Assembly (NCBI GenBank): GCA_019448385.1
Contig: JAGTXO010000092.1
Location: 1 to 54,034 of the forward strand
Source: Diacronema lutheri
Lineage: Eukaryota > Haptophyta > Pavlovophyceae > Pavlovales > Pavlovaceae
Direction of reading: 5' to 3'
DNA length: 54,034 bases
Both the position numbers and the translations under genes were made by a program. This document shows, piece by piece, positions 28,251-52,334 of the stretch. Every line of letters starts with the position of its first letter. Position 1 is the first letter of the stretch. The notes under the pieces were generated by a model. That model saw nothing but the letters and a program-made list of their open reading frames with translations. It had not been told where the DNA came from and did no database searches.

Positions 28251-28855
28251 GTGTGTGTGAGGATATGAACCACGAGCTCACTTTTGCCTCCCCGCTCAGA
28301 ACGCCTAACAGACTTTCCGTCATTTTGAAATTTCGTAAGGGGTTACGGGATTTGCCGCTTGATCAGAACGACAGTTTGTCATTCCGTAAGGGGCGATCAA
28401 AGTGTCGCGTTGTCATATCGTCAGAACGTCGAGTGCGCGCCCCGTTTTCTGAGCTCGTACCGCGCGTTCCGTTCGCTGAGCTCGTACCGCGCGTTCCGCT
28501 CGCCTGTTCACCCGCGCGCCCCGTTCGCTGAGCTCGTACCGCGCGTTCCGTTCGTCTGTTCACCCGTGCGCCCCGTTCGCTCCGTTCGCTCCGTCCGACC
28601 GCACGACCGCGCGCGCGCCGCCGGACCGCGCGCTCCGTGCGACCGCGCGCTCCGTCCAACCGCGCGCCCCGTTCGCGCCGCGCGCCCCGATCGCGCCGCC
28701 CGTCCGCGCGAAGAGTCCGAGTGCGCGCCCCGATCGCGCCGCCCGCCGCCGCCGCGGTGAGCTCGAGGGGGCGTTAGGACCGCCGGACCGGCCGTGTGCT
28801 AGGACCGCCCGGCCGGTCGCGAGCGCGTAGAGAGAGCGGCGAGAATAACCGCCGG
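28251..28855. repeat. Left terminal inverted repeat of the PLV (605 bp)
   Basis: Inverse of 51579-52183, same length and nearly identical. The outer 180 bp is unique; the inner part is built of short GC-rich direct repeats (GAGCTCGTACCGCGCGTTCC and Arg/Pro-codon-like CGCGC blocks). An open frame runs through it in both copies but is repeat-driven and not called a gene. Long repeats of this kind serve as replication ends in protein-primed systems. Confidence 0.9.
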
Positions 28856-28873
28856 CGAGGCTCATCCGCGCGA

Positions 28874-29554
28874 ATGCGAGGTGACCGGGACACCCGCTTT
28901 CGGCGCATCAGTCGCGAGCTCGCCACCAGCCCGCGCACCCGTCGCGTCGAGTTCCCAGACACCGAGCTCGACGCGGGCGACCTGATGCGCCTATCATACC
29001 TGCCACGCGGCCCCCAGTTCTCCGCCGCGGCCGACCTAGGCTACTCGGTCGATCAGGATCTTACGACTCCTGAGACCGCCGTGCTGCGCGACCCACTGGG
29101 TAAGCCTGTGATCGTACATCGCGGGTCGGCATCTGCGAAGGATTGGCTGCTCTCCGACGTCGCGATCGGAGCGGGCAAGGCCCACCACGACCCGCGGCAG
29201 CGAGAGGCGCGGCGGCTGACCGAGCAGGTCCAGCGCAAATACGGCCGCGCGGCCGACGCGTTGGGCCACTCGTTGGGAGGGCGCCTCGCCGAACAGAGCG
29301 GCGCGGGCGGTCGTGTCATCACGTTCAACAAAGCCGCCGGGCCGATGGACCTAGCGATCGCCCCGGCGAACGGTGCCCGGCAGCTCGATATGCGTGTGCC
29401 TGGGGATGTGGTGAGCGCGCTGTCCAACCGTACGGACCGACGGATCGAACGCCGCACGGTGGCGCCCGTTGGACGAGGTGGTATAGCGGGTGCCCACTCG
29501 TTGGCGAATCTCCCGAGCCGAAGGTCCAAAAATACCCGTACGACTCGTTCATAG
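28874..29554 (+). CDS. Class-3-lipase-like alpha/beta hydrolase
   Basis: 226 aa from the ATG at 28874, the first outside the terminal repeat. The nucleophile elbow GHSLGG follows ADAL at about residue 130. It is preceded by VIVHRGSASAKDWLLSD, the oxyanion-side strand typical of class-3 lipases, and followed by VITFNKAAGP. Candidate triad residues are the elbow Ser, an Asp in LDMRVPGDVVS, and the His in GAHSLANL. Related small hydrolases occur in some algal viruses. Possible roles are membrane breach during entry or exit, or modification of host lipid; neither is shown. It is the leftmost gene and the only one reading away from the left repeat. Confidence 0.7.
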   Translation: MRGDRDTRFRRISRELATSPRTRRVEFPDTELDAGDLMRLSYLPRGPQFSAAADLGYSVDQDLTTPETAVLRDPLGKPVIVHRGSASAKDWLLSDVAIGAGKAHHDPRQREARRLTEQVQRKYGRAADALGHSLGGRLAEQSGAGGRVITFNKAAGPMDLAIAPANGARQLDMRVPGDVVSALSNRTDRRIERRTVAPVGRGGIAGAHSLANLPSRRSKNTRTTRS

Positions 29555-29564
29555 CCATATGGGC

Positions 29565-30518
29565 TCACGGTGCGTAGTTGTCCCGGAGGAAGGTCTTGAC
29601 CGATGACGGTGTGACGCCGTAGGTCTCTGCGATTTGCTTATGAGCCTGTTTGACAGGTATAGTACGGTTGTCATAAGCGTTTATGACAGCTACGCGGTTT
29701 TCAGCGAGCTTCGCTAATGCCGACTGGCCCATTAGCGTACCGACCTTTTCATACAGCGGAGATTTTGAGATGCCTCCGCTCCCTGATGCACCGGGCGTTA
29801 GTCCAATCCACGGCGTGCTTGGCGTGATCGGCTGAGGTGGCTGTACAGGCGTAGACGGGGTACGCGAGCGTGTGGGCGAGGCCGCAACTATGCGCATAGG
29901 TTGAATGAGTGACGAAGGTTGGAGGGGTGCTGGACCTCCGGCAGCCTGGGGTGCCAAGGGCGCTGTGGTCGATGAAGCGGCAGGCTGGAGTGGCTGGGCG
30001 AGCGCTCCGACCGGCATGGTGGCGGCCGGTGGCGGAGCAGCCATGGTGGCGGCCATCGCCTGCGACATCGGGCGGGGTGCCTGGAAGTCGCGGGTCGGCA
30101 TGATCATAGATGAGAGCGGCTCGCGCACCGCGCTGAACGGCGGTCGGCGCCCGGGCAGCGTGATCTGCCGAAGCTCCGGGGGGTATGCCGGGTCGAGCTG
30201 GATGTCCTCGATCGACGGTGCCGGTGCGAAGACCGAATCGGCGATCCTAGGGTCGCGCGGCAACCGAGGCAGATTGTCGACGTGCTCGCGCTCGTCCTCG
30301 GAATACTCCACCGGTACGTCATGCCGGCGCAGCTTCTCCGAGTACGTCGAGTGGCGGATGCCGGTGTACCACCGTCGCCCCCTGCTCGTGAAGTGCGAGT
30401 GGTACGGGCCGACGTACGGCTCACCGCGCAGCGTAAAGTACGCCATGTCGGGGCGCGCGTCGTACTGGTTTCGGTCGCCGAGCTTCTCGCGCTCCAGAGC
30501 ATCGACGAAGGTCGTCAT
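29565..30518 (-). CDS. Putative virion protein with C-terminal helix-turn-helix-like segment
   Basis: 317 aa. Residues about 30-65 contain EPYVGPYHSH and RRWYTGIRHS, a YVGxYHxH...TGxxHS pattern that I know from structural proteins of algal viruses and phages. A long Pro/Ala/Gln-rich linker follows. The last 35 residues (IPVKQAHKQIAETYGVTPSS) look like a helix-turn-helix. It converges on the lipase gene with a 10-bp gap and lies 22 bp downstream of the ATPase gene in the same direction, so the two may be co-expressed. An AT-rich stretch (CAATTAATTT) lies just upstream of the start. The function is inferred only. Confidence 0.55.
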   Translation of the reverse strand: MTTFVDALEREKLGDRNQYDARPDMAYFTLRGEPYVGPYHSHFTSRGRRWYTGIRHSTYSEKLRRHDVPVEYSEDEREHVDNLPRLPRDPRIADSVFAPAPSIEDIQLDPAYPPELRQITLPGRRPPFSAVREPLSSMIMPTRDFQAPRPMSQAMAATMAAPPPAATMPVGALAQPLQPAASSTTAPLAPQAAGGPAPLQPSSLIQPMRIVAASPTRSRTPSTPVQPPQPITPSTPWIGLTPGASGSGGISKSPLYEKVGTLMGQSALAKLAENRVAVINAYDNRTIPVKQAHKQIAETYGVTPSSVKTFLRDNYAP

Positions 30519-30540
30519 CGGTGCCGTATGCGCGCGGAAA

Positions 30541-31365
30541 TTAATTGTCGTCGTGCTCGCCCCCCGGTTGGTCCGCGGGCGGCGCGTCGAACCGGATGCG
30601 CGCGAACCGGTTGTAGATGTGGCCGCTCGACATATCGAGCGTCATGAACTGGTGGGGGTCTGCGCCGGGCGGGAAGACGTGCTGGAAGACCGCTTCGAAC
30701 ATGCGCTTATCGATCGGTACGAGCTCGCTGCGGATGCTCTCGAGCTCACTCGTGTTGCTCGGGCGGAACAGAAAGGCGTGCGTCAGCAACTTGCGCGTGC
30801 TTAGAGGCAACGCTCGGTATGTCTGTGCGATCAGCCAGACCGACAGTCGAAGGTGGCGCCGATTGTTCGCGAACCGCTCGAGGTGCTTCCGCAGCTCGGC
30901 ATCTTTCAGATTGGCTGCGAAATCGTCGATGATGAGCAGCGTGTTCTCCGGGCGGCGGGCTCGAGCGCGCTGTTCGAGGATCGGCGTGAGTGCTGCGAGC
31001 AGCGGGGCGTCGAACGTGTGGTGCACCTTGCGCGGGTCGTGGTGGGCAAACGGGCTGTTCGTCATCGAGAGAAACGACGCCTGGGGGATCACGAGGTGCA
31101 CGTGCTCGAAGACGCCCCGGTACACCCGCGGGCTTGCCTGGCAGAGCAGCGCGGTCGACAGACTCGTCTTACCGCTGCGTGGCGGGCCGAGAAAGGCGAC
31201 GAAGTGTGCTTGGCGGGGCAGGGGTTCGGGTATGTGCTCGCCCAGACTGTTGTCCACACTGAACTTGGGGATCGTTAGGTCGATCGTGTGGCCGTCGTCG
31301 GTCACGTGCATCGATTGAGGGGGTGCCTCGATTTTAAATTCACACGAACCGAATGTTGGGCACAT
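30541..31365 (-). CDS. A32/FtsK-HerA-type genome-packaging ATPase
   Basis: 274 aa. The start at 31365 was chosen because upstream in-frame sequence is an Arg/Pro repeat antisense to another gene. Walker A is FLGPPRSGKTSL at about residue 60; Walker B is ENTLLIIDDF at about residue 145. A sensor-like segment RRHLRLSVWLIAQTYRALP follows. This ATPase packages viral DNA into the capsid at the end of assembly and is one of the core genes of polintons, virophages and PLVs. The length is normal for the family. Its 5' end overlaps the next gene (31340-31813) by 26 bp on the same strand. Confidence 0.85.
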   Translation of the reverse strand: MCPTFGSCEFKIEAPPQSMHVTDDGHTIDLTIPKFSVDNSLGEHIPEPLPRQAHFVAFLGPPRSGKTSLSTALLCQASPRVYRGVFEHVHLVIPQASFLSMTNSPFAHHDPRKVHHTFDAPLLAALTPILEQRARARRPENTLLIIDDFAANLKDAELRKHLERFANNRRHLRLSVWLIAQTYRALPLSTRKLLTHAFLFRPSNTSELESIRSELVPIDKRMFEAVFQHVFPPGADPHQFMTLDMSSGHIYNRFARIRFDAPPADQPGGEHDDN

Positions 31366-31813: not shown

Positions 31814-31835
31814 CGCGTTATGCGCCTCCCGCGCG

Positions 31836-31846
31836 ATTTTTATTTT
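31836..31846. promoter_or_regulatory. AT island in the divergent ATPase-side/minor-capsid promoter
   Basis: ATTTTTATTTT in an otherwise GC-rich 48-bp gap. On the minus strand it matches the AATAAAAAT element found before the major capsid gene. Confidence 0.5.
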
Positions 31847-31861
31847 CGGTCGCAACGGGCC

Positions 31862-32647
31862 ATGGCACCATCCGGCCGCACCCGCCTGTTCCTCACTTCG
31901 GCCCAAGCCGACGTTCTGCCACTCGGCCCCGAGCGCAACGACCGTTGCATCTTCGACGTCAGCCCCATTCACGCCAACAGCGGGCAGCGCATCGTGTGCC
32001 GTCTCGAGAGCGCGTCCATCCCGATCACCCGCCCTTCGATCCACCGCGGCAACCGCGTGCTGAGCCTGCGCTTCGGCGCGACGCCCATTTCGTACGAGCT
32101 CGACTCGCCTCGGGTGATCGGTACGTCGGCGGAGCTCGCGGCCTACCTCAGCGAGTACTTTGCCGGCCGCGGCTTGGAATGGAGCTTCTCGAGCGATGTG
32201 TCGCGGCTCTCGGTGACCAACACGACCGCGTCGATCGTCACTCTGCACGGCGCGGCAGACGGCTGCACGAGCGCAGGGCTCATAGGTCTCGGCCGGCAGG
32301 GCGTCGTCGTGCCGATCGGAGCCACGGTCCAGCTGCCTGCGGTGCCCGACGTGATGGGTGGCGCGCGTATGGTGCTCGTCGTGGCGGAAGGCCTCGAGTT
32401 GGGCTCGTCGGACTCGGGCTCGCTGCTCCGCCCGCGCTCGCACACGTCGAACATCCTGGCCGCGGTGCCCATCGGCGTTCCGTACGGCGGGCTCCAGCAG
32501 TACACCGCGACGACGGGCCTGTCGTTCCCCACGGGGCGTGCGACCATTAGCTCGATCGATCTGCAGCTGCTCGACCAGGATGGCGTCGAGTACAACACGA
32601 ACGGCAGCGAGTGGAGCGCGGTCGTCCATTTCGAGGTCATCGGCTAG
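31862..32647 (+). CDS. Minor capsid (penton) protein
   Basis: 261 aa from the ATG at 31862. The protein is beta-rich throughout, as expected of the single-jelly-roll penton of polintons and PLVs. The C terminus (IDLQLLDQDGVEYNTNGSEW then SAVVHFEVI) has the last-strand pattern usual for this family, and QQYTATTGLSFPTG is in the expected place. It would form the pentameric vertices of the capsid. It lies directly upstream of the major capsid gene with one small gene between, an arrangement common in PLVs. I recognise it by position and fold pattern rather than by a catalytic motif. Confidence 0.7.
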   Translation: MAPSGRTRLFLTSAQADVLPLGPERNDRCIFDVSPIHANSGQRIVCRLESASIPITRPSIHRGNRVLSLRFGATPISYELDSPRVIGTSAELAAYLSEYFAGRGLEWSFSSDVSRLSVTNTTASIVTLHGAADGCTSAGLIGLGRQGVVVPIGATVQLPAVPDVMGGARMVLVVAEGLELGSSDSGSLLRPRSHTSNILAAVPIGVPYGGLQQYTATTGLSFPTGRATISSIDLQLLDQDGVEYNTNGSEWSAVVHFEVIG

Positions 32648-32712: not shown

Positions 32713-33048
32713 ATGCTCTTCGGTCGATTCGGCGCACGCGTCCGGCAGTGGGGGCGCACAGCTCTTCCCAAAGCCCAGCTTTTCGGCCGCCAGCTCGCCC
32801 AAGGCCTGCACACCGGCGCGCGCATCGCGCGGCAGATCACCGATTTCGGCGACCGCGCCATCCAGTACGCGACGGACCACCACCTGGGCGGCGATGCGAT
32901 TCGACCGGTGCTCGACTCGGGCCGCGCGATCCTGGGCGAGGCGCGGCTCGGCGCGCGCATCGCGGATGAAGTGGGCTCCGGCCTCGATGGGCTCGTGACC
33001 GGCTTCGAGCGCCGACCGGCAGGCCCGGGACCCGGTCCGCGGCGGTAG
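32713..33048 (+). CDS. Small basic protein between minor and major capsid genes
   Basis: 111 aa from ATG 32713 (MLFGRFGARVRQWGRTALPK). It is basic with amphipathic helices (FGRQLAQGLHTGARIARQIT; GRAILGEARLGARIADEVG) and a Gly/Pro tail. It has no Cys and no clear membrane span. Small basic or amphipathic proteins in this position often are internal virion components (cement or membrane-active, like adenovirus pVI), but no match can be shown by eye. Confidence 0.5.
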   Translation: MLFGRFGARVRQWGRTALPKAQLFGRQLAQGLHTGARIARQITDFGDRAIQYATDHHLGGDAIRPVLDSGRAILGEARLGARIADEVGSGLDGLVTGFERRPAGPGPGPRR

Positions 33049-33118: not shown

Positions 33119-33128
33119 AATAAAAATG
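33119..33128 (+). promoter_or_regulatory. AATAAAAATG element before the major capsid gene
   Basis: It lies 37 bp upstream of the preferred capsid start. Elements of the same form lie at 34483-34492, 34518-34527 and 44616-44623. The ATG inside the element is out of frame or followed by a stop at the other sites, so I take the element as a promoter, not a start codon. Confidence 0.55.
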
Positions 33129-33164
33129 GGTGATCCATGCCACCCACCCCCCCCGCGTCGAATC

Positions 33165-34487
33165 ATGATGCCCATGAGCCCGATCGATGATGGCCATCAC
33201 GAGGTGTCCAACTCGCTCCCTGAGGGCTACCACCTGAAGAAGCATTCGATCGCCCCGCCCGCCCAGTCCACCCGCTCGTACATCACGCCGCGCGGCGCGT
33301 CCACCTTCCTCCCGGGCGCCAAGATCGAGTTTGACATTCCGTGCGGCTCGCCCGGCCAGTTCCTCGACCCGAGCCAGACGGTCCTCGCGTTCACCGTGCG
33401 CAACACGAACAACGTGAGCACCGACACGCTTCGTCTCGACGGTTCGGCGGCGTCGGTGATCGGTGAGATCCTGCTGTACCACGGCTCGACCCAGATCTCG
33501 CACATCAGCGACTACGAATCGTTGGTGAAGCTGTTCGAGGACGCGACGACCGACCTCGACTCGCTGCGCAGCTCGGGGACCGTCCGCGGCGTCGCCGAGT
33601 ACGCGCCGACTGCCAACGATTTGGCGGGCCTCGTGGCGGCGTACTACTCGCGGGCCGGCGCGACGATCAACGGCGGCGGCTCTCTTGAGGTGGCGATTCC
33701 GCTGATGTGCATCATTGGCACCATGGCACACCGCGTCCTGCCGCTGAGCGCCATCAGCGACTCGCTTCGGCTGGAGATCAAGCTCAATCCGGCGGTGCTC
33801 TGGGGCGGCTGGAATGATGCCGATCAGTCCGGACTCGTGAGCGACGTTCGGTTGTACCTCTCGCACGTGATTCTCGACGGTGCGGTGGAGCGCGCCATGA
33901 TGTCCAGCCTCGGCGGTCAGTACGAGATTCCTGTCACCGACGTCCGCTCGTTTAGCCATACCATCGAGGCCAGCTCGGGCGCGGCCACGTACCAGTTTCC
34001 GCTGCGGGTGTCGAGCGCAAACAAGGTGTTCGTCGTGTTCCGCCCGCGCGCATCCGCCTCGACGAACCGGGCGTATTGGGCGATCGGCCGCACGCGCGGG
34101 ACCATCTCGAGCTACCGCTTCCGCCTCGGCGCCCAGAACATCCCCGCGAGCGAGGTGCCGTGCACCGGCTCGGCGGCCGAGGCGCGCGCCGAGTTCATCC
34201 GTGCGATGGGCAGCATCTCGGACTCTGCCGCGCGCTCGTGCGTGCCGACATCGCAGTACATCTCGGACGCCGCGGGCGACTACGCCCAGGGCGGCTTTGC
34301 CATCGGGCTCGACCTCCAGGCGTTCGCGGCGGGCGACGCGCTCGCCGACGGCCGCAGCCTGCGCCACGAGTACCTCACGCTCGACTTGCGCATGGCGAAC
34401 AACAACCCGGCGCTCACGATGACGGCGTACATCCTCTTCGACAAGTTGCTAACCGTGCACAGTGGGCTGCTGTCGTACTCCGATTAA
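33165..34487 (+). CDS. Major capsid protein, double jelly-roll
   Basis: 440 aa from ATG 33165 (another ATG at 33168; an in-frame ATG at 33126 lies within the promoter-like element). The N-terminal part has RSYITPRGASTFLPGAKIEF, two beta-sandwich halves follow (ILDGAVERAM between them). The C terminus is FAIGLDLQAFAAGDALADG, HEYLTLDLRMANNNPALT, AYILFDKLLTVHSGLLSYSD, the ending usual for PLV major capsid proteins. Trimers would form the hexagonal capsomers. The gene is intact, without stops or shifts. Length is within the usual PLV range. Confidence 0.85.
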   Translation: MMPMSPIDDGHHEVSNSLPEGYHLKKHSIAPPAQSTRSYITPRGASTFLPGAKIEFDIPCGSPGQFLDPSQTVLAFTVRNTNNVSTDTLRLDGSAASVIGEILLYHGSTQISHISDYESLVKLFEDATTDLDSLRSSGTVRGVAEYAPTANDLAGLVAAYYSRAGATINGGGSLEVAIPLMCIIGTMAHRVLPLSAISDSLRLEIKLNPAVLWGGWNDADQSGLVSDVRLYLSHVILDGAVERAMMSSLGGQYEIPVTDVRSFSHTIEASSGAATYQFPLRVSSANKVFVVFRPRASASTNRAYWAIGRTRGTISSYRFRLGAQNIPASEVPCTGSAAEARAEFIRAMGSISDSAARSCVPTSQYISDAAGDYAQGGFAIGLDLQAFAAGDALADGRSLRHEYLTLDLRMANNNPALTMTAYILFDKLLTVHSGLLSYSD

Positions 34488-34543: not shown

Positions 34544-35200
34544 ATGGCTTCAGAACAGCTGAGCAGCCAGTTCGGGAACGCCCTACGCGCGAGCCACATC
34601 GACAAGCCGCCCCGCACGGGAGGTCTATACATCATCCGCCCCGGCTGGGGGCGCGATCGCAACCTCTTCAAGGTCGGTCGTACAAATGTCATCGGACGGC
34701 GACAGGGGAATTACTCACAAGCCATGCCACACGTGGCCGGCTCAGTTCAGATCGTCGCGTTTCTCATCGTCGCCGAGTCACAGCAGGTCGCACGAGAGCA
34801 AGCCCTCAAAGACGCCACGAGCCCCGGCTTCGGCTTCACGGCGGTTCACCCGAAGGACACCGAGTGGCGGCGGTACACCGGCAACGACTTGGGAGCGTCG
34901 ATCCGCGCGCTGTTCTCCCACATCCGACGCGCAGTCGACGGCCGCGCGTACGTTTTCGACGACCTGACCGGTAGGGTCGAGGGGTGGTTCGGCCGTGAAG
35001 CATACGTGCAACAGCCAAACGCCTTGCCGATCGGACCGGTCGTGACGCTGCGCTCCCAGTCGAACCGTCGCCGGCTGGGCTCGGTTCGACCCGACGGGAC
35101 GGCGGCCGACCCATCGACGCAGAACGGGGTGCACACGCGGCTGCTGCGTCCCCGGGGCCCGCGTCCACCGCGACGCATTTCTTATGTCGGTATGGAGTAG
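34544..35200 (+). CDS. GIY-YIG nuclease-domain protein
   Basis: 218 aa. The GIY-YIG core is at residues about 25-110: GGLYIIRPGW (GIY equivalent), LFKVGRTNVIGRRQGNY (YIG equivalent with catalytic-type Arg), and a later Glu in HSREQALKD-like helix (QQVAREQALKDATSPG). It is followed by EWRRYTGNDLGASIRALFSH, typical of the T5orf172/MSV199-type branch. The C-terminal 80 residues are basic and Pro/Arg-rich. Roles could be processing of genome ends, recombination or cleavage of host DNA. Because no integrase is seen, it is a candidate for a part in integration, but that is speculation. Its end overlaps the fibre start by 17 bp. Confidence 0.75.
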   Translation: MASEQLSSQFGNALRASHIDKPPRTGGLYIIRPGWGRDRNLFKVGRTNVIGRRQGNYSQAMPHVAGSVQIVAFLIVAESQQVAREQALKDATSPGFGFTAVHPKDTEWRRYTGNDLGASIRALFSHIRRAVDGRAYVFDDLTGRVEGWFGREAYVQQPNALPIGPVVTLRSQSNRRRLGSVRPDGTAADPSTQNGVHTRLLRPRGPRPPRRISYVGME

Positions 35201-37827
35201 CACCGAAGAAATGGCGTCTGTCCTAGGCACGATCAAGCTGGTCGACGAGCCGACGGTTGAGGAGGAAATGCTCGAGCCACTAACGGGTGACTTGGTCGCA
35301 GGTTCCAGGAAACTGCTCGAATCGCCGCGCTTCACGTCAGACACTACGCTCGCGGACGACTACTCGAGCGTGTACGGCTGGGACACCAACGAGGGTTGGG
35401 CGGTCACAGCGAGTGCATCCTTAACGCAGGCTCGGGCGGCAATGGCTTTCAACAAAACAAATACTGGTCCTCCTGACGGCTGGCATAGCATAATCGCCCC
35501 AGTCAAATGGCTGAAGATTCAATTTCCACATGCGGTCGTGTTGGACTCGTATACGATTACGTCCAGGAATGATCAGTCATTTGTATGGTTCCCGACAAAG
35601 TGGCACGTGCGCGGCTCGTTGGACGGTACGACATGGACCGATCTGGAAGAACCTCGTATAGAGACCACGTGGATTCACAACACGAGCAAAACGTTTGATG
35701 CAGGTATCACCAAATCAGTGGCATATCGTCAATTCATGCTCTATATAGAGTCTTCTAGGCGAACCATTACAAATGCCGACAGCAACTATGTAGTAATCGG
35801 CGAGTGGATCCTCAAAGTATACACAAATTTTATCGAACCCGAGCGGTATGCTAAGCCAGTGGACGGCACCTTCTTTGACACCCCATGGTACGGCGCTCCA
35901 CTCACACCATCGTCCGCCTTTGGTCTCCTCGGTGTGAAGCAGGACTTGATCACACCCCTGGGGCATGTCGGCGCTCGCCTTGGTGATCGCTCCTTCTTCA
36001 CCACGCCCAAGTATTACGTCCCGACGACGGAGGCCGGAATGGACTACCTCTTCGAGACAATAAAGGGTGGGGCACAACTCGCCGGTGGGCACTATGCACG
36101 GGGCTTTGCTATCTCAGTCGATAGGCAGGGTGTTGTGAGCGTGAAAATGAACGATTCGAGCATGGTGCCCACAAGCATTGTGCTCACAGATGGATGGTAT
36201 TTCATACAGTGGCAGCTAGATAGCGCTCGGCGGATTGTGATTATCCGGGCGCAGTCGTATGCAAGCGGTACGGTGCAGACAGATTTCAAAATTACCGCAA
36301 ACATTGTCTTCGAGATCGGAGCGGGCGTGCGCTATGGATCAGGTGGCGCTGATGTGGCTCGGCTGTATGTCCGAGAGATGTTTGGTAATCTGAATACGCT
36401 GGATGCGCTCGAGAATCCCAAATTCACGTCTGCAAACACCGTCGATATGACGGGGTACGGGGGGTGGGCAGTCAATGGTGTCGGTCCGTTCGAGTGGGCG
36501 GTGCGTGCATCGCATCCAGGCGTGGATTCCAACTTCGAGCCCTATAAAAATGCTGATAAAATATTCTTGGCTAATCGTTACTTGTTTGACACTCTCGAAG
36601 GTGACGACCGTTGGTGGGAAATTCGGTATCCTACGCGCGTGATTCTCACATCGTTTCGAATGCAGTACCGGACAAATATAGATAATAACCGACTGGTGAA
36701 CAAGTGGACTATCCAGGGATCAGATGACGGTGTGAATTACACCACCATTCAGTCATACACAAACCCTTTTGCGCAGGGGTTCGACGCAAATTATGACTAT
36801 ACGGTAGCAAATCAAGGCACCGCATACCTCTACTGGCGCATCAACATTCTTGACAATGTGGGCTCCATCTATAAGACGCAGATGATCGAGACACGGTTTT
36901 TCACTATTTTTCCTGAAAAACCCTTCTACGAGCGTTCCTCTCCCACTGGCGCCGAGCTGACCGACACCGTGATGTCGCCTACGCAGTCGGCGAGGTACCC
37001 CATCGGTCCAGCAGTAGTGGGTAAGACCGGGCTGCTCATAGACGCGCATGTCCAAGCCTCGGGTACCGGCGTGGTGATGGGCGTGCGGGCTTCCCCATTC
37101 TCGACCGATGCGGTATGGAGGTTGGAGCGGCTCGAGGATGGCCATCTCAAGCTCGTTGTCGGTCCGGCGGCTACCACAACCACGAGCCCCATCGACCTCG
37201 GCACGATGAAGCGGTTGACGTTGGACATCTCTCACACAGTAGGTCGCTCCTTTTTGCAGATCTTCGTGGATGGCGTACGTTTCACGGAGAGCGGGTGGGT
37301 TGACGGGGATGTTGAAGTGCTTCCCGACACTGCGTCGCTCGTGCTCGGCGGCACGCCGGGCATCACATGTGTGGTCGAGCGCGTCGCCGTGCGGAAAGAC
37401 CACTCGCGAGTGAGGGCGGGCCATGACGGGCCGCTTGCAAGCAAGATACGAAGCGTGTATTATGATGAGTTGTATACCGAGCCAACAAGGGGGGGTTCCG
37501 CGAGCCAGGTGTTGGCCGGTGCGCGCATCCCTTTGGATATGGACAAAGAAATGTCAAAGATGATTGAACCACTTACGGGTGACGTGGTAGAAAAGGTCGG
37601 GAAACTGCTCGAATCGCCGCGCTTCACTTCAAACAACACGCTCGCGGACGACTACTCGAGCGTTTACGGCTGGGATACCAACGAGGGGTGGGCTGTGAGC
37701 GCGATCTCGGATATTTCAGATAACATGCCACCGTGGCGCGCGTTCAATAAGACAGAACTAAACAATAACGATTGTTGGCATAGCCATAATGATCCCTCAG
37801 ATTCCAATTGGTTAAAGATACAATTTC
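35184..37827 (+). pseudogene. Fibre/adhesin gene, 5' part (split by Copia element)
   Basis: About 880 codons before the insertion. Modules in order: a short leader; EPLTGD…KLLESPRFTS followed by a discoidin (F5/8C-like) domain (WLKIQFPHAVVLDSYTI; KWHVRGSLDGTTWTDLEE); a LamG-like segment (GFAISVDRQGVVSVKMND); LENPKFTSANTVD with a second discoidin-like domain (KWTIQGSDDGVNYTTIQS); and a LamG/concanavalin-like domain (TGLLIDAHVQASGTGVVMGV). The EPLTGD module then begins again at about 37560. Such sugar-binding modules fit a receptor-binding fibre; that is inference. The region is clearly more AT-rich than its neighbours. The frame is cut at 37827 by the retrotransposon. Confidence 0.75.
37823..37827. 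repeat. Left target-site duplication ATTTC
   Basis: 5-bp repeat matched at 42681-42685, flanking the Copia element. Confidence 0.9.
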
Positions 37828-45027: not shown

Positions 45028-45099
45028 CTCCCGAACGCGCGCGCGCGCGCGCGTTCATTTTAACGCGACAAAAACCTGGGCCGCTGGACACGAGAGACG

Positions 45100-45396
45100 A
45101 TGTGCCTCAACGCCGATGTGCAGCCTCATTTCTTGCTACTTGGCTATGAGGTGTTGTGGGGTGTCAAGAAGCACTCCGATCACTGCTACATCGGCCAGTG
45201 CAAACGCCTTGACGATGGTCTCCGGTACGATCTGGTCGTGAGCCGCACCGGCATCTCAATCAAGAAGGACCTCGCGCAGGTCGCACGCGTGCCCATTCCG
45301 CCCGCCATGCGCGATGCGTTCTGGCCGACCGAGGCGGTGGCGCGCAAGGGGTGCCGCATCTGCTGCGATGACGACTGGGAGCAGGGTCTAGCTTAG
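45100..45396 (+). CDS. Small Cys-rich protein of unknown function
   Basis: 98 aa (MCLNADVQPHFLLLGYEVLW). The N-terminal half is beta-like, the C terminus ends CRICCDDDWEQGLA. It sits between the two zinc-ribbon genes, divergent from one and overlapping the end of the other by 9 bp; this tight packing supports a real gene. No motif is recognised. Confidence 0.5.
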   Translation: MCLNADVQPHFLLLGYEVLWGVKKHSDHCYIGQCKRLDDGLRYDLVVSRTGISIKKDLAQVARVPIPPAMRDAFWPTEAVARKGCRICCDDDWEQGLA

Positions 45397-45702
45397 GTCG
45401 AGCTTCTCATTCTCGACCAGCTCGATCTCCCCTCGTGCCACCTGTTGGGCGAGCGCCCGCGCCGCAAAGTGCCGCTCCTGGCGAGCACGCACCATCCGCT
45501 TCACGCACTCGTTGCAGTTTTGCGTTAAGTACACATTGCCCGAGCGGTGGTGGCGCCGGCAACACATGTCGTTCACATCGACGGTGCGCTCACAGGTCCG
45601 GCACGTTCGCTGCGGCATTCCGAGCACGGCGCACGGTTCGATCATCAGGCGTGGGGCGCGCGAAGGCATGGTAGGACCGGTTGGTTGACCATCGGAACGC
45701 AT
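45388..45702 (-). CDS. Zinc-ribbon protein, paralogue 2
   Basis: 104 aa from 45702, or 93 aa from the ATG at 45669 (MPSRAPRLMIEPC), which is preferred because the first ATG lies in a TTAAAATG element. Cys pairs CRTC and CNEC with RRHH between, then RMVRARQERHFAARALAQ. It is a clear paralogue of 44728-45027, implying a tandem duplication with later insertion or retention of the 45100 gene between them. Confidence 0.6.
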   Translation of the reverse strand: MRSDGQPTGPTMPSRAPRLMIEPCAVLGMPQRTCRTCERTVDVNDMCCRRHHRSGNVYLTQNCNECVKRMVRARQERHFAARALAQQVARGEIELVENEKLDLS

Positions 45703-45707
45703 TTTAA
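45700..45707 (-). promoter_or_regulatory. TTAAAATG element before zinc-ribbon paralogue 2
   Basis: CATTTTAA on the plus strand, i.e. TTAAAATG reading toward the gene, about 33 bp before the preferred start. It is the shorter form of the virion-gene element. Confidence 0.45.
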
Positions 45708-45788
45708 GACGCGCCGTTTAAACGCGCGTCGCGTCGCGCGACGTGCGTACCGTGCGGGCGACTCTCCATTTTCGGGCGAACCCACCGG

Positions 45789-48700
45789 TCACTCCGAGTC
45801 CACCTCCATGGCGTTCGAGCCGGCGCGCGAAGCATCCGCAACGGCCTGGGCGCGGTAGTGCCCGTGCGCCAACGCGTGGATGCCGTCGGGAAGCAGCACG
45901 CACTTGTCGTCGTAGCGAGTCAATGCGATGCGGGCCTTCTGCCGGAGGAAGATGCGGTGGTCGCGGTCCGAGTCGAGCGAGTGTGACACCACGCGCACCT
46001 TCTCACCCTGGAACAGCACGCGCTTGTAGTGGTCCATCTGAAAGTGCGCCTTGGCAATCCGCTTCGGCGCGCCCTTGCACACAAACTTCGCAGACTCGTC
46101 ATCAGCGAGCTTGTACGCATAGGCCTTGGCGCGGCACCCAAAGAACGACTGGATCAGTCGACCGCTCGTCTCGTCGGTGAGGTAGCCGAGCTGCTTGCGG
46201 TGCGATGCGTCGTAAAGCGGGTCGTCGGGCGACAAATCGCTCAGGTCGAGCCATGACGAGCCGAGCGAACGCATGGCGGTCTGATACTCCTCGATCGAGT
46301 CGACGTGCATCTGGACCATGACGCTGTCCGTGTCCGTCATGAGCAGCTCGGACCGAGGGAATGCCGCTTTGAGCCCGCCGTAGTAGAAGCTCGTCATCAT
46401 CGCCTTGGAGAGATCGAGAACCGCTTGGCCGACAAACACGGGCTTGTTCAACTCAGTCTCGTGCGGCTGGAAAAAGGCCATAGCGAAATCGTCGTCGAGC
46501 TGTCGCATGCCTAGGAAGCCGGGCGCGTTGATGCGCCGCTTGATCATCGATCGGCGCGTCGTATAAATCGTCTTCGTGTGCTTGGACACGTCCTCCATGG
46601 TCTTTCCAAAGGGAGCGTTCATCATGAGCTTGAAGAAGGAGCGTGCAAACTCGCTCTTCGCCTCAGCGCGTTTGGCCGCCATGAGCTCGATGTAGGGGCG
46701 CATCCACGGCGTCTGCTTGTACGTCATGACCCGATGCAGCTTGGTCACGCGCACGCCGAGCGAGCAGTAGAGTTTGAGCGCCGAGATGTGCACGATGTAC
46801 TTCGTGATGTCGCCCAGCTGGCTCATGAGCTTGTATCCGGGCGTGCGCGTGCTCCGACCCTTGTCGTCCGTGGGCACCTGCGACGCGGACAGCTGCTCGT
46901 CTGCGACCATCATCCTGCAGGGCGCCGGTGGGAAATCGTTGAGACGATCGTGCGTCTCGAGCGGGAAGTGCAGATCGACCTCGAGCACTGCGCCGCGCTC
47001 CGTCATGAACTCTTCCGACGGCTGCCCACCGCGCGTCATGAAGCCGCCGTACATCGGGTCGTTGACGTACCGCATGGCCGCCGCCTCGTCTCCCTCACCG
47101 ATGTTCACCTCGTCAAAGCAGTCGATCGGCAAGTGTTGCGACATGACGCTCGGGTACATACTCGTAAAGTCCATGTACTGGATGCGCGAAATGGGCTTGC
47201 CCGGATCGAACTCCGCCGACCCTGGGAAGTTGGACTCTGCAGCCCTCTTGCGCACCATGCTCACACCGCCGCGGATGCCCATCTGAAACCAGCGGTACCA
47301 TCCCATGTTGCTAATGAGCCGAACGCGCGCCCCTGTGATGCGCATCATCGTCGTGTTTGCAAAACTGGGGAGGCCGACAAAGTGGAACGGGTCGATGCCA
47401 GCCAGCCCGATAGCCAGCGAGCAGAATGAGGCCAACACGTCGGCCAGGGCCTCGACATCGACGCGCAGGTAGAGCTTCACCATCTCCCCGATCGTGCGCA
47501 CGCCGAGCTCCGCGCACGTCTCCTTCAACCGCGCGATGTACTCGTCGGGCTTGTACCCCACCGGCCCACGTGTGCTGGAGGTTACCTTACCGGTATCCTC
47601 GTCGATCGTCTCGATCCAACCGTGCTCGAGCGTGGCGTGGAAGTCCTCGCGGCAAAGCGTCTCGACCGACTCGTCGCGGCGAGCGTACCACTGCGACTCG
47701 TACGGAAAGGGGAGCTTGCGGCGCAGCAGCTCGAACCGACGTCCCGGACCGTCGCCCTCCGCGGCGAACTCGCGGAGGAAGTGCTTGTCCGCGTCGGGCA
47801 CATCGTCTAAGAGGGTCTCGAGGCGCCCCTGGAGAAAAGCGCACGAATCGAGGAACTTGAAACGACCAATCTCGAGCGACTTGAACTTCATCGTGTTCAC
47901 GTGCAGCGACGAGATCTTGTTCTCCGCCAGTGCTCGGATCTCCGGGTCGGCCAGCGCTTGGTGTATGATGTGACCGTCGTAACCGGTCATGTTGTGGAAC
48001 AGCACGGGGATCTTCACCGGGACCTTGCGCTTCAGGTTGCAGTACGAGTGCGCCGCGCCCATGTACTTGCCGGTGTAGTGGCAATGATCGAACGCTTTCG
48101 CCCACTTGAGCTTATCCTTCCTAACGCGGTCACTCTCGGCATAGTCGTCGTCGTCGTCGTCGTCATCCTCCGAATCCGAGCCCAGGTCAACCCCGTCGTC
48201 CGGCCGCTCGCCGAGTTTCTTGTTGCAGCACCAGCACATCGTCGCCTCGGCGTACGCGTCTTGCACCTCCTGGCAGTACGTCTCGATGGGTGGCAACTCT
48301 TCAAACTTCGGCTCTGGGATCGTCACTCGCTCGAAGAGCATTCGCAAAAAGGCCTTGTGCGCGTCCGGACCTAGGTGCTCCCAGTAGAAGCTCTCTCCGT
48401 GCGGTGAGACGATGCGTGCCCCTGCCGCGAAGCACGTCTGCTCGAGCTTGACATCGTTTTCAAACTCGGCGTTCTCCCGCTCCACCTGCACCGCCTCGAA
48501 ATCTGCCGACACATAAACGGGGTGGGGGCACAGCGTCTTGTACTCTTCGAACCTGCTGTACACCTTATCGGGCATCTTGTACTTGCGCTCGCCGGGCTCG
48601 GGATGACCGTTGCACTTGGCAACGTGCGCCTTGTATGCTGAGTCGCCGTTGTTGTTGAAGAACCCCTTCATGCAGCAGAGGCAGACGCTTTTCGAGTGGT

Positions 48701-50396
48701 TTGTCCCAGGGCAGAGAACGGCCGACGGGTTGCGCATGGCCAGGAAGTGATCCTTGTAGATGATCACGTTCAGCACCGTCTTCTTGCGCTGGTCGGCCGC
48801 TTTTGCGAGGCGAAGATCCCACGGGGTGTGGTACGCCTTCTCGTCGATGATCTCCCCGGTCGTCTTGTTGCGGCGAATCGGACCCTGCTCGTCGGGCTCG
48901 GGGTCCAGCTTGAACACATTCCAGCAATACGTCGGGTTTGCGAGCTCCCACGCGTCGATGTTCTCCACGGTGACCGGGTAGATGTTCGGGCCAGGCGGCT
49001 CGATGATCTTGTAGGTCGAGTGTTTGAGGATCACGCTAGGGCGGTACTTGTAGCGGCACTCGTCCGGCAGGCCGAGGGCCAGCGAGGCGTACAGGAAGCA
49101 CTTGTTGTCCTTGTTTGTCGGGTTGATCAGACCGAGCTTCGAGTTCTTCATGATCTCCGGCAGATCCTCATGACTCGAGCCGCGGTCGCGCGCGCCGGTC
49201 ATCGGGTGCGTCTTGAGCGAGAACTCCAGCACACCGAAGGAGAACTTGTTGCCATACTCATCGAGCGTGTTGATGATCTTCCGCTCAATCATCTCCGCGA
49301 GCATGTCGACCGACTCTCCCGTCGCCAGCACCGACGTCGAGTACTCGTACGTCGCGAGCGCACCGCTCTGGGTATACTTGATCATGTTGATCAGCCGGGC
49401 GTTGGAGGATCCTGCCATCGCACGGCGCACGACCGGACCGAGACTTGCGGCGATGTCGATGTCCTTCGTGGTGTCCTCGCCCGGCTGGTTGGACGCGCGC
49501 ACAGCACCCGAGAGCGCGATGAGCTGAGCGCGGAACGGCTTCCCACGCCACTCCTCGCGCGCCTTCTCGTAGAGCCTGGCGGCGATTTCCTTGACCTCCT
49601 TCAGCGACAACTCCTCGGGCGTCGACATGTCAGCCGGCATGCCGATGTAGCCCATAAGCTCGGTGAAATCGGGGTGGTTGGCCATGCTCGAGCGGAGCGC
49701 GCCGACGGTGCTGTATTGCAGCGTAAACGTGCGCTCGAGCCCCTTGAATGTCCCGTACGTCTCATCGCGCACGGTGACCTCTTCGTCGAAGAGCCCCTGC
49801 TCCTGGGGCAGGAAGGCATCCCGAACCGACGAGAGTGGCGGCAGGCGCGCGATCAACGAGGGCGTGTAGATCTTGGAGCGGAGCGCGATGGTCGGCCAGC
49901 TCTCCCTCACCAACTCGATCATCGCCGAACGACCTGGGCGAACGGGGCGGGTGGGGCAGGCGGCCGGGCGCGCGGCGCGAACGGGAGGCGCGGGGCGCGG
50001 GCGAGCGGGCTGGGCGGGGCGCGCGGCGGTCGGCGTGAAGAAGCTTGAGATGCTCGCCTGCGAGAGCGAACGGACGGGGCGGCCGAACGCGCGGGGGCGG
50101 GTGGAGCGGGCGCTCCGGACGAACGACATGGGCGTGTTGAGCGTCTCCTCGAACGTGACGGACGGGCGGGCGGCGGTGGCGGCGGCGGCGGCGGCGAGGG
50201 CGCGGCGGGCACGGAAGGCACGTTGGACGTTGGCGAACGATGAGCTGAGGCTCGAGGTCGTCGGGCCGAAGAGGGCGATGATGTGGTTCGAGCTGGGGAC
50301 GTTCTGGCTGGTCGACATTGCGATCGGGTGAACCATGGCGCGGGTTTTTGGCGGGCCGTCCTGAACGCACCTGCGCGCGCGCGCCGGCGGACGCAC
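45789..50396 (-). CDS. Protein-primed family B DNA polymerase (pPolB)
   Basis: 1535 aa from 50396; starts at 50336 or 50318 are also possible. Residues 1-150 are Ala/Arg/Pro-rich. About 150-560 form a conserved N-terminal region (NKDNKCFLYASLALG; a CLCC…HVAKC zinc finger) like that of Maverick/polinton polymerases. Exonuclease motifs: SADFEAVQ (about 631) and NMTGYDGHI (about 804). Polymerase: MDFTSMYPSVM (motif A, about 1077), KLMMNAPFGK (motif B, about 1259), MTDTDSVMV (motif C, about 1355). The frame is intact. It copies the viral genome from a protein primer at the inverted repeats. It is the largest gene and the main replication gene present. Confidence 0.9.
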   Translation of the reverse strand: MRPPARARRCVQDGPPKTRAMVHPIAMSTSQNVPSSNHIIALFGPTTSSLSSSFANVQRAFRARRALAAAAAATAARPSVTFEETLNTPMSFVRSARSTRPRAFGRPVRSLSQASISSFFTPTAARPAQPARPRPAPPVRAARPAACPTRPVRPGRSAMIELVRESWPTIALRSKIYTPSLIARLPPLSSVRDAFLPQEQGLFDEEVTVRDETYGTFKGLERTFTLQYSTVGALRSSMANHPDFTELMGYIGMPADMSTPEELSLKEVKEIAARLYEKAREEWRGKPFRAQLIALSGAVRASNQPGEDTTKDIDIAASLGPVVRRAMAGSSNARLINMIKYTQSGALATYEYSTSVLATGESVDMLAEMIERKIINTLDEYGNKFSFGVLEFSLKTHPMTGARDRGSSHEDLPEIMKNSKLGLINPTNKDNKCFLYASLALGLPDECRYKYRPSVILKHSTYKIIEPPGPNIYPVTVENIDAWELANPTYCWNVFKLDPEPDEQGPIRRNKTTGEIIDEKAYHTPWDLRLAKAADQRKKTVLNVIIYKDHFLAMRNPSAVLCPGTNHSKSVCLCCMKGFFNNNGDSAYKAHVAKCNGHPEPGERKYKMPDKVYSRFEEYKTLCPHPVYVSADFEAVQVERENAEFENDVKLEQTCFAAGARIVSPHGESFYWEHLGPDAHKAFLRMLFERVTIPEPKFEELPPIETYCQEVQDAYAEATMCWCCNKKLGERPDDGVDLGSDSEDDDDDDDDYAESDRVRKDKLKWAKAFDHCHYTGKYMGAAHSYCNLKRKVPVKIPVLFHNMTGYDGHIIHQALADPEIRALAENKISSLHVNTMKFKSLEIGRFKFLDSCAFLQGRLETLLDDVPDADKHFLREFAAEGDGPGRRFELLRRKLPFPYESQWYARRDESVETLCREDFHATLEHGWIETIDEDTGKVTSSTRGPVGYKPDEYIARLKETCAELGVRTIGEMVKLYLRVDVEALADVLASFCSLAIGLAGIDPFHFVGLPSFANTTMMRITGARVRLISNMGWYRWFQMGIRGGVSMVRKRAAESNFPGSAEFDPGKPISRIQYMDFTSMYPSVMSQHLPIDCFDEVNIGEGDEAAAMRYVNDPMYGGFMTRGGQPSEEFMTERGAVLEVDLHFPLETHDRLNDFPPAPCRMMVADEQLSASQVPTDDKGRSTRTPGYKLMSQLGDITKYIVHISALKLYCSLGVRVTKLHRVMTYKQTPWMRPYIELMAAKRAEAKSEFARSFFKLMMNAPFGKTMEDVSKHTKTIYTTRRSMIKRRINAPGFLGMRQLDDDFAMAFFQPHETELNKPVFVGQAVLDLSKAMMTSFYYGGLKAAFPRSELLMTDTDSVMVQMHVDSIEEYQTAMRSLGSSWLDLSDLSPDDPLYDASHRKQLGYLTDETSGRLIQSFFGCRAKAYAYKLADDESAKFVCKGAPKRIAKAHFQMDHYKRVLFQGEKVRVVSHSLDSDRDHRIFLRQKARIALTRYDDKCVLLPDGIHALAHGHYRAQAVADASRAGSNAMEVDSE

Positions 50397-50750
50397 GCGG
50401 TGGTGGGTGGTCGGACTCGGGCGCTCCGAGCGGCTGACCGGCGGTGGTGGCGGTGGCGGGCGGCGGGGCGGCGGGGTGGCGGCGGCGGACCGGCGGCGGC
50501 GGCGGACGATCGGTCTGAGATTCTCAATTCTCAGGTCATCCAGACGGTCAGGTCATCCGGACGGTCAGGTCATCCGGACGGTCAGGTCATCCGGACGGTC
50601 AGGTCATCCGGACGGTCAGGTCATCCGGACGGTCTCGCGGGCGAAATACGTAACCAGCAATGTTTTCCCATCGCGATTTGAACACATCTCACCCACGCGC
50701 GCCCGTGCGATCGGTGGCCGGCGATTTGTCTGTGGTGCTGAAGGTACCGA
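50397..50750. promoter_or_regulatory. Divergent intergenic region between pPolB and the DUF5754-like gene
   Basis: 354 bp, GC-rich at the left, holding the 17-bp repeat array at 50532-50633. It serves two divergent genes. The ATTAAAAATG element is absent, which suits early genes. Confidence 0.45.
50532..50633. repeat. Six tandem 17-bp repeats
   Basis: Six head-to-tail copies of CAGGTCATCCGGACGGT, one with a G-to-A change in the first copy. Perfect periodicity and position between replication genes suggest protein-binding iterons, either a regulatory site or an origin-linked site. Confidence 0.85.
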
Positions 50751-51050
50751 ATGATCTCCGCGACTCTCTCACGCTCGCCCCTCTCATCGAAGAAGTGGCG
50801 GATCTTTCTTACCGACGGAGCGGTCGTGCGCACGATCGACTTTGGAGCACGCGGATACCAGGACTTCACGCAGCACGGTGATCTTGAGCGTCGGACCGCC
50901 TATTTGAGCCGGCACGCGGCACGCGAGAATTGGCGGGATCCATACAGCGCAGGCTTCTGGTTGCTCTGGGAGCATACGACCTTATTGGCGGCTGCTCGAG
51001 CCATCACCCGTCGTTCCGGCATTCGGATCAAGCTGCCAGCGAGCACGTAG
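50751..51050 (+). CDS. DUF5754-like small viral protein
   Basis: 99 aa. The core KKWRIFLTDG, then TIDFGARGYQDFTQHGDLER, LSRHAARENWRDPYSAGFW and LLWEHTTLLAAARAI matches a family I know from giant and related viruses (I recall it as DUF5754), with unknown role and possible structural function. The usual WSRWLLW is shortened here to WLLW, a loss of about three residues. An in-frame stop lies just upstream of the ATG, fixing the start. It is the last gene before the right inverted repeat. Confidence 0.7.
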   Translation: MISATLSRSPLSSKKWRIFLTDGAVVRTIDFGARGYQDFTQHGDLERRTAYLSRHAARENWRDPYSAGFWLLWEHTTLLAAARAITRRSGIRIKLPAST

Positions 51051-51305
51051 GTCCTTGTCATTTAGCGATTGCGCGCGCGCGCGCACTCGGACTCTTCGCG
51101 CGGACGGGCGGCGCGATCGGGGCGCGCACTCGGACTCTTCGCGCGGACGGGCGGCGCGATCGGGGCGCGCGGCGCGAACGGGGCGCACGGTTGGACGGAG
51201 CGCGCGGTCGCGCGGAGCGCGCGGTCCGGCGGCACGCGCGCGGTCGTGCGGAGCGAACGGGGCGCGCGGTTGGACGGAGCGCGCGGTCGCGCGGAGCACG
51301 CAGCC
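51051..51305. repeat. Displaced inner fragments of the terminal repeat
   Basis: The CGCACTCGGACTCTTCGCGC and GACGGGCGGCGCGATCGGGG blocks of the terminal repeat appear again here, partly duplicated. No gene is called, although open frames run through the Arg-codon-like repeats. Confidence 0.65.
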
Positions 51306-51568
51306 CCAGCGTCACTCAGCGTCACAGGTACCTGTCACATACGGAAAGTACCTGGTACCTGGTACCGGATGCCGCAGACCCCCCGAATACTTTATACCCT
51401 ATAGAGACTATAAAATACATTATCACTTTTAAATTTTTTCTAAAAGTGAGAATGTAAAATATACACTCTCTATAGGGTATAAAGTTTTCGGGGGGTCTGC
51501 GGCATCCGGTACCAGGTACCTGGTACTTTGCATATGTGACAGGTACCTGTGACGCTGAGTGACGCTGG
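51306..51568. repeat. 263-bp near-perfect palindrome (foldback/MITE-like)
   Basis: The arms start CCAGCGTCACTCAGCGTCAC and end with the inverse. They run about 120 bp each to an AT-rich centre (CTTTTAAATTTTTTCTAAAAG). They contain GGTACC-rich blocks and a TATACCCTATAGAG/CTCTATAGGGTATA pair. The AT-rich core contrasts sharply with the surroundings. It abuts the right terminal repeat and is absent from the left side, so it is either an inserted foldback element or a structural site acquired at one end. Confidence 0.85.
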
Positions 51569-51578
51569 CATTGGCGTA

Positions 51579-52183
51579 CCGGCGGTTATTCTCGCCGCTC
51601 TCTCTACGCGCTCGCGACCGGCCGGGCGGTCCTAGCACACGGCCGGTCCGGCGGTCCTAACGCCCCCTCGAGCTCACCGCGGCGGCGGCGGGCGGCGCGA
51701 TCGGGGCGCGCACTCGGACTCTTCGCGCGGACGGGCGGCGCGATCGGGGCGCGCGGCGCGAACGGGGCGCGCGGTTGGACGGAGCGCGCGGTCGCACGGA
51801 GCGCGCGGTCCGGCGGCGCGCGCGCGGTCGTGCGGTCGGACGGAGCGAACGGAGCGAACGGGGCGCACGGGTGAACAGGCGAACGGAACGCGCGGTACGA
51901 GCTCAGCGAACGGGGCGCGCGGGTGAACAGGCGAGCGGAACGCGCGGTACGAGCTCAGCGAACGGAACGCGCGGTACGAGCTCAGAAAACGGGGCGCGCA
52001 CTCGACGTTCTGACGATATGACAACGCGACACTTTGATCGCCCCTTACGGAATGACAAACTGTCGTTCTGATCAAGCGGCAAATCCCGTAACCCCTTACG
52101 AAATTTCAAAATGACGGAAAGTCTGTTAGGCGTTCTGAGCGGGGAGGCAAAAGTGAGCTCGTGGTTCATATCCTCACACACAC
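51579..52183. repeat. Right terminal inverted repeat of the PLV (605 bp)
   Basis: Inverse of 28251-28855, equal length, almost identical (one residue differs between the open frames that cross the two copies). Confidence 0.9.
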
Positions 52184-52334
52184 TTTGATCGCCCCTTACG
52201 GAATGACAAACTGTCGTTCTGATCAAGCGGCAAATCCCGTAACCCCTTACGAAATTTCAAAATGACGAAAAGTCTGTTAGGCGTTCTGAGCGGGGAGGCA
52301 AAAGTGAGCTCGTGGTTCATATCCTCACACACAC
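52184..52334. repeat. Tandem duplicate of the outer 151 bp of the right end
   Basis: It repeats 52033-52183 with a single visible change (GACGGAAAG to GACGAAAAG). The element therefore ends twice on this side; the second copy is the one joined to host DNA. Confidence 0.9.

What the first reader, a model, noticed from the sequence alone, without database searches (positions are those of the whole stretch)
28251..52334. Integrated polinton-like virus inside a host F-box/ankyrin gene
Capsid proteins, packaging ATPase and protein-primed polymerase lie between 605-bp inverted repeats, and the host coding repeat is split exactly at both ends. Virion and replication genes are intact except the fibre, so the copy is young or still partly active. 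The insertion point at base level is rarely this clear.
Basis: partly seen in the sequence, partly recalled or inferred. Interest (0 to 1): 0.9.

Follow-up and report, generated by a model that had tools for sequence, protein, structure and literature searches.

The report
Hybrid algal virus integrated in host
A small DNA virus sits in a repetitive gene of a single-celled alga; its shell genes are almost identical to those of sister copies elsewhere in the genome, but its copying machinery and genome ends are of a different kind, which suggests that related viruses recently swapped engines.

Summary
Window 28251-52334 is an integrated polinton-like virus (PLV) in an alga whose assembly matches Diacronema lutheri: 605-bp inverted ends (604/605 identical), a double-jelly-roll capsid protein, an A32-type ATPase, an open pPolB frame. 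It sits in an ankyrin-repeat array with no net base change (modulo the 81-bp unit). F-box was not found. The fibre gene is split by a nested copia retrotransposon.

New here: (1) Three other full-length relatives (C4; a C69 head-to-tail dimer) have 97-99% identical virion genes but an SF1-helicase-type protein instead of pPolB, and different genome ends. The window copy is a hybrid: polymerase cassette and both termini differ together. (2) No integrase was detected; net change at insertion is 0, +1 or -2 bp, pointing to end joining. (3) A second locus (C15), made only of viral end fragments, sits at the same phase of another ankyrin array; host flanks are about 80% alike, viral pieces 99%. That suggests a preferred site, from one independent test.

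PLV proviruses, replication-gene replacement and nested retrotransposons are known; the near-identical hybrid and the repeated site are unusual. No reads were available.

The parts
27342..28250 (+). host ankyrin-repeat array (81-bp units), left of the insertion; frame broken near 28035-28070
28251..28855 (+). left TIR; outer 485 bp B-type with (GT)n terminus, inner 120 bp (28736-28855) A-type
28874..29554 (+). lipase-like protein (weak label: sub-cutoff hits and a recalled GHSLG motif)
   Evidence: 99% in siblings
29565..30518 (-). unknown protein, fast evolving
   Evidence: no family hit; pN/pS 0.93-1.23
30541..31365 (-). A32-type packaging ATPase
   Evidence: PF04665 3.1e-10; phrog_2666 terminase 3.2e-14
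31820..32647 (+). candidate minor capsid protein (by place and size only)
   Evidence: no family hit; 96-99% in siblings
32713..33048 (+). small conserved protein
   Evidence: 99% in siblings; no Pfam hit
33126..34487 (+). major capsid protein, double jelly roll
34544..35200 (+). possible GIY-YIG (T5orf172) protein
   Evidence: PF10544 E 0.066, below cut-off; 69-72% in siblings
35184..37827 (+). fibre-like protein, first part, F5/8 type C domains
   Evidence: PF00754 4.3e-12
37828..42680 (+). nested Ty1/copia element; LTRs 37828-38100 and 42408-42680, 273/273 identical; polyprotein 38970-42356; 5-bp duplication ATTTC
   Evidence: RVT_2 4.6e-28
42681..44581 (+). rest of the fibre region
44728..44979 (-). 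small HNH-like protein, A-type version (weak label)
   Evidence: 93-99% in siblings; HNH E 0.0065
45033..51295 (.). B-type replication cassette, no second long copy in the genome
45388..45702 (-). small endonuclease-like protein, B-type version (48% over 44 residues to the A-type one)
45789..50336 (-). [quoted passage not shown]
   Evidence: PF03175 1.5e-11; relatives; invariant DTDS columns; motif places
50751..51050 (+). DUF5754 gene, B-type version; siblings carry a 57-58% version beside MCP
   Evidence: PF19058 8.6e-20
51100..51286 (-). internal 91% partial copy of TIR positions 314-499
51296..51698 (.). A-type right-end sequence, inner TIR included
51579..52183 (-). right TIR
52180..52334 (-). 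extra partial TIR (positions 155 to 1), joined over ACAC
52335..52455 (+). end of the host ankyrin gene, right of the insertion
   Evidence: 95% to 24006 onward; translation to a stop

Best explanation
An integrated polinton-like virus that is a recombinant of two related viruses. One (A-type) supplied the virion genes. The other (B-type) supplied pPolB, two small genes and the outer 485 bp of both inverted ends, which are the presumed replication origins of a protein-primed genome. The linear genome entered the chromosome without a recognisable integrase of its own, by exact or near-exact end joining, favoured at one position of the host's ankyrin repeat. A copia retrotransposon broke the fibre gene. 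Shown: gene content, hybrid make-up with shared breakpoints, sister copies, net base changes at the insertion sites against paralogous empty sites, the second insertion at the same repeat phase, the nested copia. Inferred: that the ends are origins cognate to the polymerase, that end joining was the route, that the site is preferred, which type is ancestral, and the order of events.
For: Capsid fold, ATPase, pPolB and TIRs. Hybrid: 28736-34472 is 97-99% to C4 and C69A/B, 45033-51295 is unmatched there but for a 71% stretch in the DUF5754 gene, and the edges 28736, 45032 and 51698 are the same against C4 and C69A. The sibling slot holds a 1289-1455 aa protein with an AAA_30 helicase domain and no detected similarity to pPolB. 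The window keeps both versions of a small HNH-like gene on either side of the 45032 edge. Changes in MCP, ATPase and lipase are mostly silent (pN/pS 0.14, 0.16-0.24, 0.12-0.25; few changes). No integrase or recombinase model hit in 13 viral frames of the window by Pfam. Net change: C4 +1 bp (3 of 9 spanning empty copies inspected); C69 -2 bp (2 of 40 listed inspected); C60 and C15 zero modulo 81. C69 A/B: head-to-tail, ends joined without loss, 1 mismatch and 2 single-base gaps in the 13.4 kb compared. C15 sits at the same repeat phase; one random insertion hits one of 286 such sites with p about 7e-6. C15 and C60 left flanks are 83% alike over 566 bp against 98.9-99.7% for the TIR pieces.
Against: The site preference rests on one independent locus, as C60 defined the site. 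The third B-type end piece (C69:426114, TIR 68-320) lacks the terminus and is not in an array. No donor B virus was found. Two zero-change insertions are also what a site-specific recombinase would give. Two virion genes show no purifying pattern (candidate mCP pN/pS 0.72-0.91, 29565-30518 0.93-1.23; all genes together 0.40 and 0.51). C60 is a single 54-kb contig and no reads were checked. Minor capsid, lipase and GIY-YIG labels are weak. Empty-site comparators are paralogues, not alleles. Short viral frames were not all scanned for a recombinase.
Confidence: 0.68

Rival explanations
1. A tyrosine-type recombinase, supplied in trans or too divergent to detect, integrates a circular form by exchange over a short GTG core; this explains the lack of TSD, the exact insertion and the repeated site.
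For: In C60 and C15 the left viral end begins GTG and the right host flank begins GTGGGCG. PLVs with such recombinases lack TSDs (PMC12220804, PMC12721341; passages).
Against: No recombinase model hit in the frames scanned. The A-type events differ (+1 and -2 bp) and lie in unrelated sequence. Tandem truncated ends (C15, 52180-52334) do not follow from it.
Confidence: 0.22
2. One insertion into one ankyrin array was spread to the other array by ectopic recombination or gene conversion, so there is no site preference.
For: The arrays are many and similar: 100 matches listed at 71-100% to a 567-bp array query.
Against: Identity drops from 99% to 81% and 78% (nearest two units) right at the viral end, on the left flank; the right flanks part after about 32 bp. 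A conversion tract would have to stop at the viral ends on both sides.
Confidence: 0.07
3. The hybrid is an assembly chimera.
For: C60 is a short contig and the virion half has near-identical relatives.
Against: The window differs from every sibling by 1-3% all along the shared half, so it is a distinct copy; the pPolB cassette has no other long copy to have come from; the assembly rests on deep PacBio data (PMC8379373, passages).
Confidence: 0.06
4. A retroviral-type integrase or DDE transposase inserted it, as in Polintons and mavirus.
For: TIRs and exact ends.
Against: No 5-6 bp duplication at C60, C15, C4 or C69; no integrase model hit outside the copia frame, and none inside it either (RVT_2 only).
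Confidence: 0.03

Closest known systems
Polinton-like viruses of algae (PgVV and relatives)
   Same: capsid-ATPase set, long TIRs, about 20 kb, GIY-YIG and lipase genes in some, pPolB or SF1 helicase in others (PMC4642659, PMC12220804; passages)
   Different: capsid relatives found by sequence only in Pavlovales plus one metagenome protein (capped at 8000 candidates); no recombinase found; near-identical copies in one genome differ in replication type
OmPLV of Oxyrrhis marina
   Same: integrated PLV, no TSD, replication protein with SF1 helicase (PMC12721341; passages)
   Different: OmPLV has a Y-rec gene and a helicase-pPolB fusion; here no recombinase was found, and helicase protein and pPolB are on different copies
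EMALEs (mavirus-like endogenous virophages)
   Same: replication-gene replacement, nested retrotransposons, TIRs (PMC8547959; passages)
   Different: EMALEs carry rve integrase, mostly 3-5 bp TSDs, and no sequence-specific integration was seen there
Maverick/Polinton
   Same: pPolB, DJR capsid protein, A32 ATPase, TIRs
   Different: no viral rve integrase and no 5-6 bp TSD here

Membership tests
Polinton-like virus | double-jelly-roll major capsid protein | tested here: met
Polinton-like virus | A32-type packaging ATPase | tested here: met
   PF04665 3.1e-10, above cut-off
Polinton-like virus | minor capsid protein | tested here: inconclusive
   candidate 31820-32647 by place and size; no family hit
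Polinton-like virus | terminal inverted repeats, 14-40 kb | tested here: met
   605-bp TIRs, 23.9 kb between outer ends including a 4.9-kb copia element
Polinton-like virus | replication gene (pPolB or helicase/primase type) | tested here: met
   PF03175 1.5e-11
Maverick/Polinton | retroviral-type integrase | tested here: not met
   no rve model hit in 13 viral frames of the window
Maverick/Polinton | 5-6 bp target-site duplication | tested here: not met
   net change 0 at C60
Maverick/Polinton | capsid maturation protease | tested here: inconclusive
   no hit in the frames scanned; short frames not all scanned
PLV with tyrosine recombinase | tyrosine recombinase gene | tested here: inconclusive
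   no hit in the frames scanned; divergent forms can escape
Virophage (helper-dependent) | dependence on a giant virus | not testable with these tools
   no infection data
Ty1/copia retrotransposon (37828-42680) | LTRs, 5-bp duplication, RVT_2 | tested here: met

The most novel reading that the evidence does not exclude
The B-type virus has sequence-guided, integrase-free integration. Its (GT)n genome end imitates the start of the host ankyrin unit (8 of 12 bases at C60, 9 of 12 at C15; about 0.5% of random 12-mers from the host part of the window reach 8), so that linear genomes, and even copy-back end fragments like C15, are joined exactly at that position of a multicopy host repeat. Changing the polymerase cassette then means changing the termini, and so also the integration address.
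Probability: 0.2. Interest if true: 0.78.

Novelty: new variant of a known kind. Interest (0 to 1): 0.55.

Why it matters
Small eukaryotic viruses are thought to exchange replication modules, with the evidence coming mostly from discordant gene histories. Here two replication types carry virion genes that are 97-99% identical in one genome, and polymerase and both genome ends differ together. That makes co-inheritance of polymerase and origin directly testable. The exact, duplication-free insertions and the repeated ankyrin site offer a case for asking how PLVs without a recognisable integrase enter chromosomes.

Tried and rejected
F-box: no model at E<=0.01 in 7 host frames. Free relatives in viral contigs: MCP, MCP alignment, ATPase and terminus pattern gave none; the pPolB alignment gave 2 loci at 29-30% identity, not studied further. 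MCP against PDB sequences: none; profile: 2 chains at E 0.9, taken as chance. Helicase-type protein against the pPolB profile: no similarity, but the first profile had only 3 rows; its own protein search gave 2 relatives, one of them D. lutheri's. A polymerase-like tail in that protein is recalled motif reading only; its fold was never obtained. A common motif at the insertion sites was seen by eye after the fact and C46 does not fit; dropped. Weak or very short TIR matches at C11, C75 and C85 (71-91%, 42-158 bp) were taken as chance GC-rich matches and not counted; the C4, C46 and C53 rows were kept because longer alignments bore them out. L030, one of the C4 empty copies, was sought but my exact-string look-up did not find it.

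The capsid model came after a long queue (the same answer was collected again). The Foldseek searches (viral, pdb) were never accepted.

Literature: 'Pavlovales' with 'polinton' 0 papers; 'virophage, ankyrin, integration site, endogenous' 0 papers; other searches (listings with abstract starts). Nothing is claimed beyond this open-licence library. PMC8379373, PMC10120064, PMC12220804, PMC8547959, PMC12721341 and PMC4642659 were seen as found passages only.
Full report
What was checked. The window is one whole contig (C60, 54,034 bp) of a 43.49-Mb, 103-contig assembly. Size and contig count match Diacronema lutheri NIVA-4/92 (43.503 Mb, 103 contigs; PMC8379373, passages), and the capsid search returns a D. 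lutheri protein on a contig of C69's length. The species is an inference.

Nested copia. 37828-42680 is a Ty1/copia element with identical LTRs (273/273) and a 5-bp duplication ATTTC, inside the fibre region. The C4 sibling has its own copia insertion of the same family in the same region, in the opposite direction (LTRs 262/262). The C69 siblings show none there.

Sister copies and the hybrid. The capsid gene has four places in the genome at 99-100% protein identity: the window, C4:98252-120636, and C69:1616210-1634911 and 1634912-1653649. Partial members lie on C53 and C46. Against C4 and C69 the window is 97-99% identical over 28736-34472 (96-99% under the scoring). It is 84-99% where matched over the GIY/fibre region to 45032. 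It is unmatched over 45033-51295 except for a weak 71% match at 50832-50969 (the DUF5754 gene), matched again over 51296-51698, and unmatched in the outer 485 bp of both TIRs. In place of pPolB the siblings carry a 1289-1455 aa protein with an SF1-type helicase domain (AAA_30, 1.7e-9; sub-cutoff RecD and TraA hits), without detectable similarity to pPolB. Their genome ends start GCTGCTCTC instead of GTGTGTGTG. Short terminal repeats of this kind are what protein-primed replication is known to use for sliding back (recalled, not tested). Around the 45032 edge the window keeps both versions of a small HNH-like gene (44728-44979, 93-99% to the siblings; 45388-45702, 48%), and the DUF5754 gene stands beside the capsid gene in the siblings but in the B cassette in the window. 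The right side of the cassette ends in a 91% partial copy of the B-type TIR (51100-51286). The cassette has no second long copy in the genome; the remaining matches are short. Changes in MCP, ATPase and lipase are mostly silent (pN/pS 0.14, 0.16-0.24, 0.12-0.25), but the candidate minor capsid protein (0.72-0.91) and 29565-30518 (0.93-1.23) show no such pattern; six genes together give 0.40 and 0.51, from few changes. The simplest reading is recombination between circulating viruses in which polymerase and both ends changed together. Which type is ancestral is open.

How it got in. The host sequence is an array of 81-bp ankyrin units. A neighbouring array shows the uninterrupted junction. Against it the insertion has no net change, except that lost whole units would be invisible; a 3-bp GTG overlap is possible. 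The host frame is already broken just upstream, so this was perhaps not a working gene. For C4, nine rows span the joined flanks; the three inspected show that the filled site has one extra T. For C69, the 40 rows listed span the joined flanks; the two inspected show that two bases (GG) are missing from the filled site. C69 A and B abut end to end with no loss and differ by one mismatch and two single-base gaps in the 13.4 kb compared; copy number in such an array could be an assembly matter. The spread 0/+1/-2, the dimer and the end fragments fit joining of linear ends better than a transposase.

The second insertion at the same place. C15:148720-149812 consists only of four end fragments: 1-178 forward, then 298-1, 340-1 and 284-3 reversed. 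It begins ...gaggtgctcca|GTGTGTGAGAGG and ends CTCTCACAC|gtgggcgagagagc, the same phase of another ankyrin array. The first two pieces form a fold-back joined over GAACG, as in copy-back defective genomes (recalled comparison). The window's own extra 155-bp piece is joined over ACAC; the other two C15 joins show no overlap. The two host units nearest the left junction are 81% and 78% identical between the loci (further out my ungapped count falls to 11-30% because of a shift); a gapped match gives 83% over 566 bp, while the TIR pieces are 98.9-99.7% identical. So the insertions look independent. Near-exact target units number 286 (control 0), giving about 7e-6 for one random hit. C60 defined the site, so this is one test. 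The third B-type piece (C69:426114-426364, positions 68-320) has no terminus and does not lie in an array. The viral end resembles the target (8/12 and 9/12), which suggests short-homology guidance but does not prove it.

Known or new. PLV proviruses are common in protists (PMC10120064, passages). Replacement of pPolB by helicase-type proteins, separate histories of capsid and polymerase genes, GIY-YIG genes, absence of TSDs in PLVs with tyrosine recombinases, and nested retrotransposons are described (PMC12220804, PMC12721341, PMC8547959, PMC4642659; passages). I found no paper in this open-licence library on polintons in Pavlovales. New as far as seen: the hybrid at 97-99% identity with both termini exchanged, and the same-phase ankyrin insertions without a recognisable integrase.

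Noticed in passing
window 24803-27032: Dispersed repeat of about 2.2 kb next to the array, with many genomic copies at about 92% (51 matches listed, self included; a lower bound).
   Followed up: no
L012 2412/2413 (C69:1634911/1634912): Two sister proviruses joined head to tail, end to end, with no base lost and almost no divergence.
   Followed up: partly
L014 2221-3313 (C15:148720-149812): Mini-element made only of viral end fragments, starting with a fold-back pair, at the same ankyrin phase as the window insertion.
   Followed up: yes
L015 1615-1865 (C69:426114-426364): Lone internal TIR fragment (positions 68-320) without terminus, outside any array.
   Followed up: partly
C4 and C69 insertion sites: Both A-type insertions with known empty sites lie in multicopy repeats (9 and at least 40 copies), as do C60 and C15.
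   Followed up: partly
window 35184-44581 and C4:107318-113352: Fibre region hit separately by the same copia family in two of the four proviruses.
   Followed up: partly
window about 28035-28070: In-frame stop and 1-bp shift in the host ankyrin array just upstream of the insertion.
   Followed up: partly
L017 1358-1897 (C46:782857-783396): Contig C46 ends inside the left end of another A-type element.
   Followed up: no
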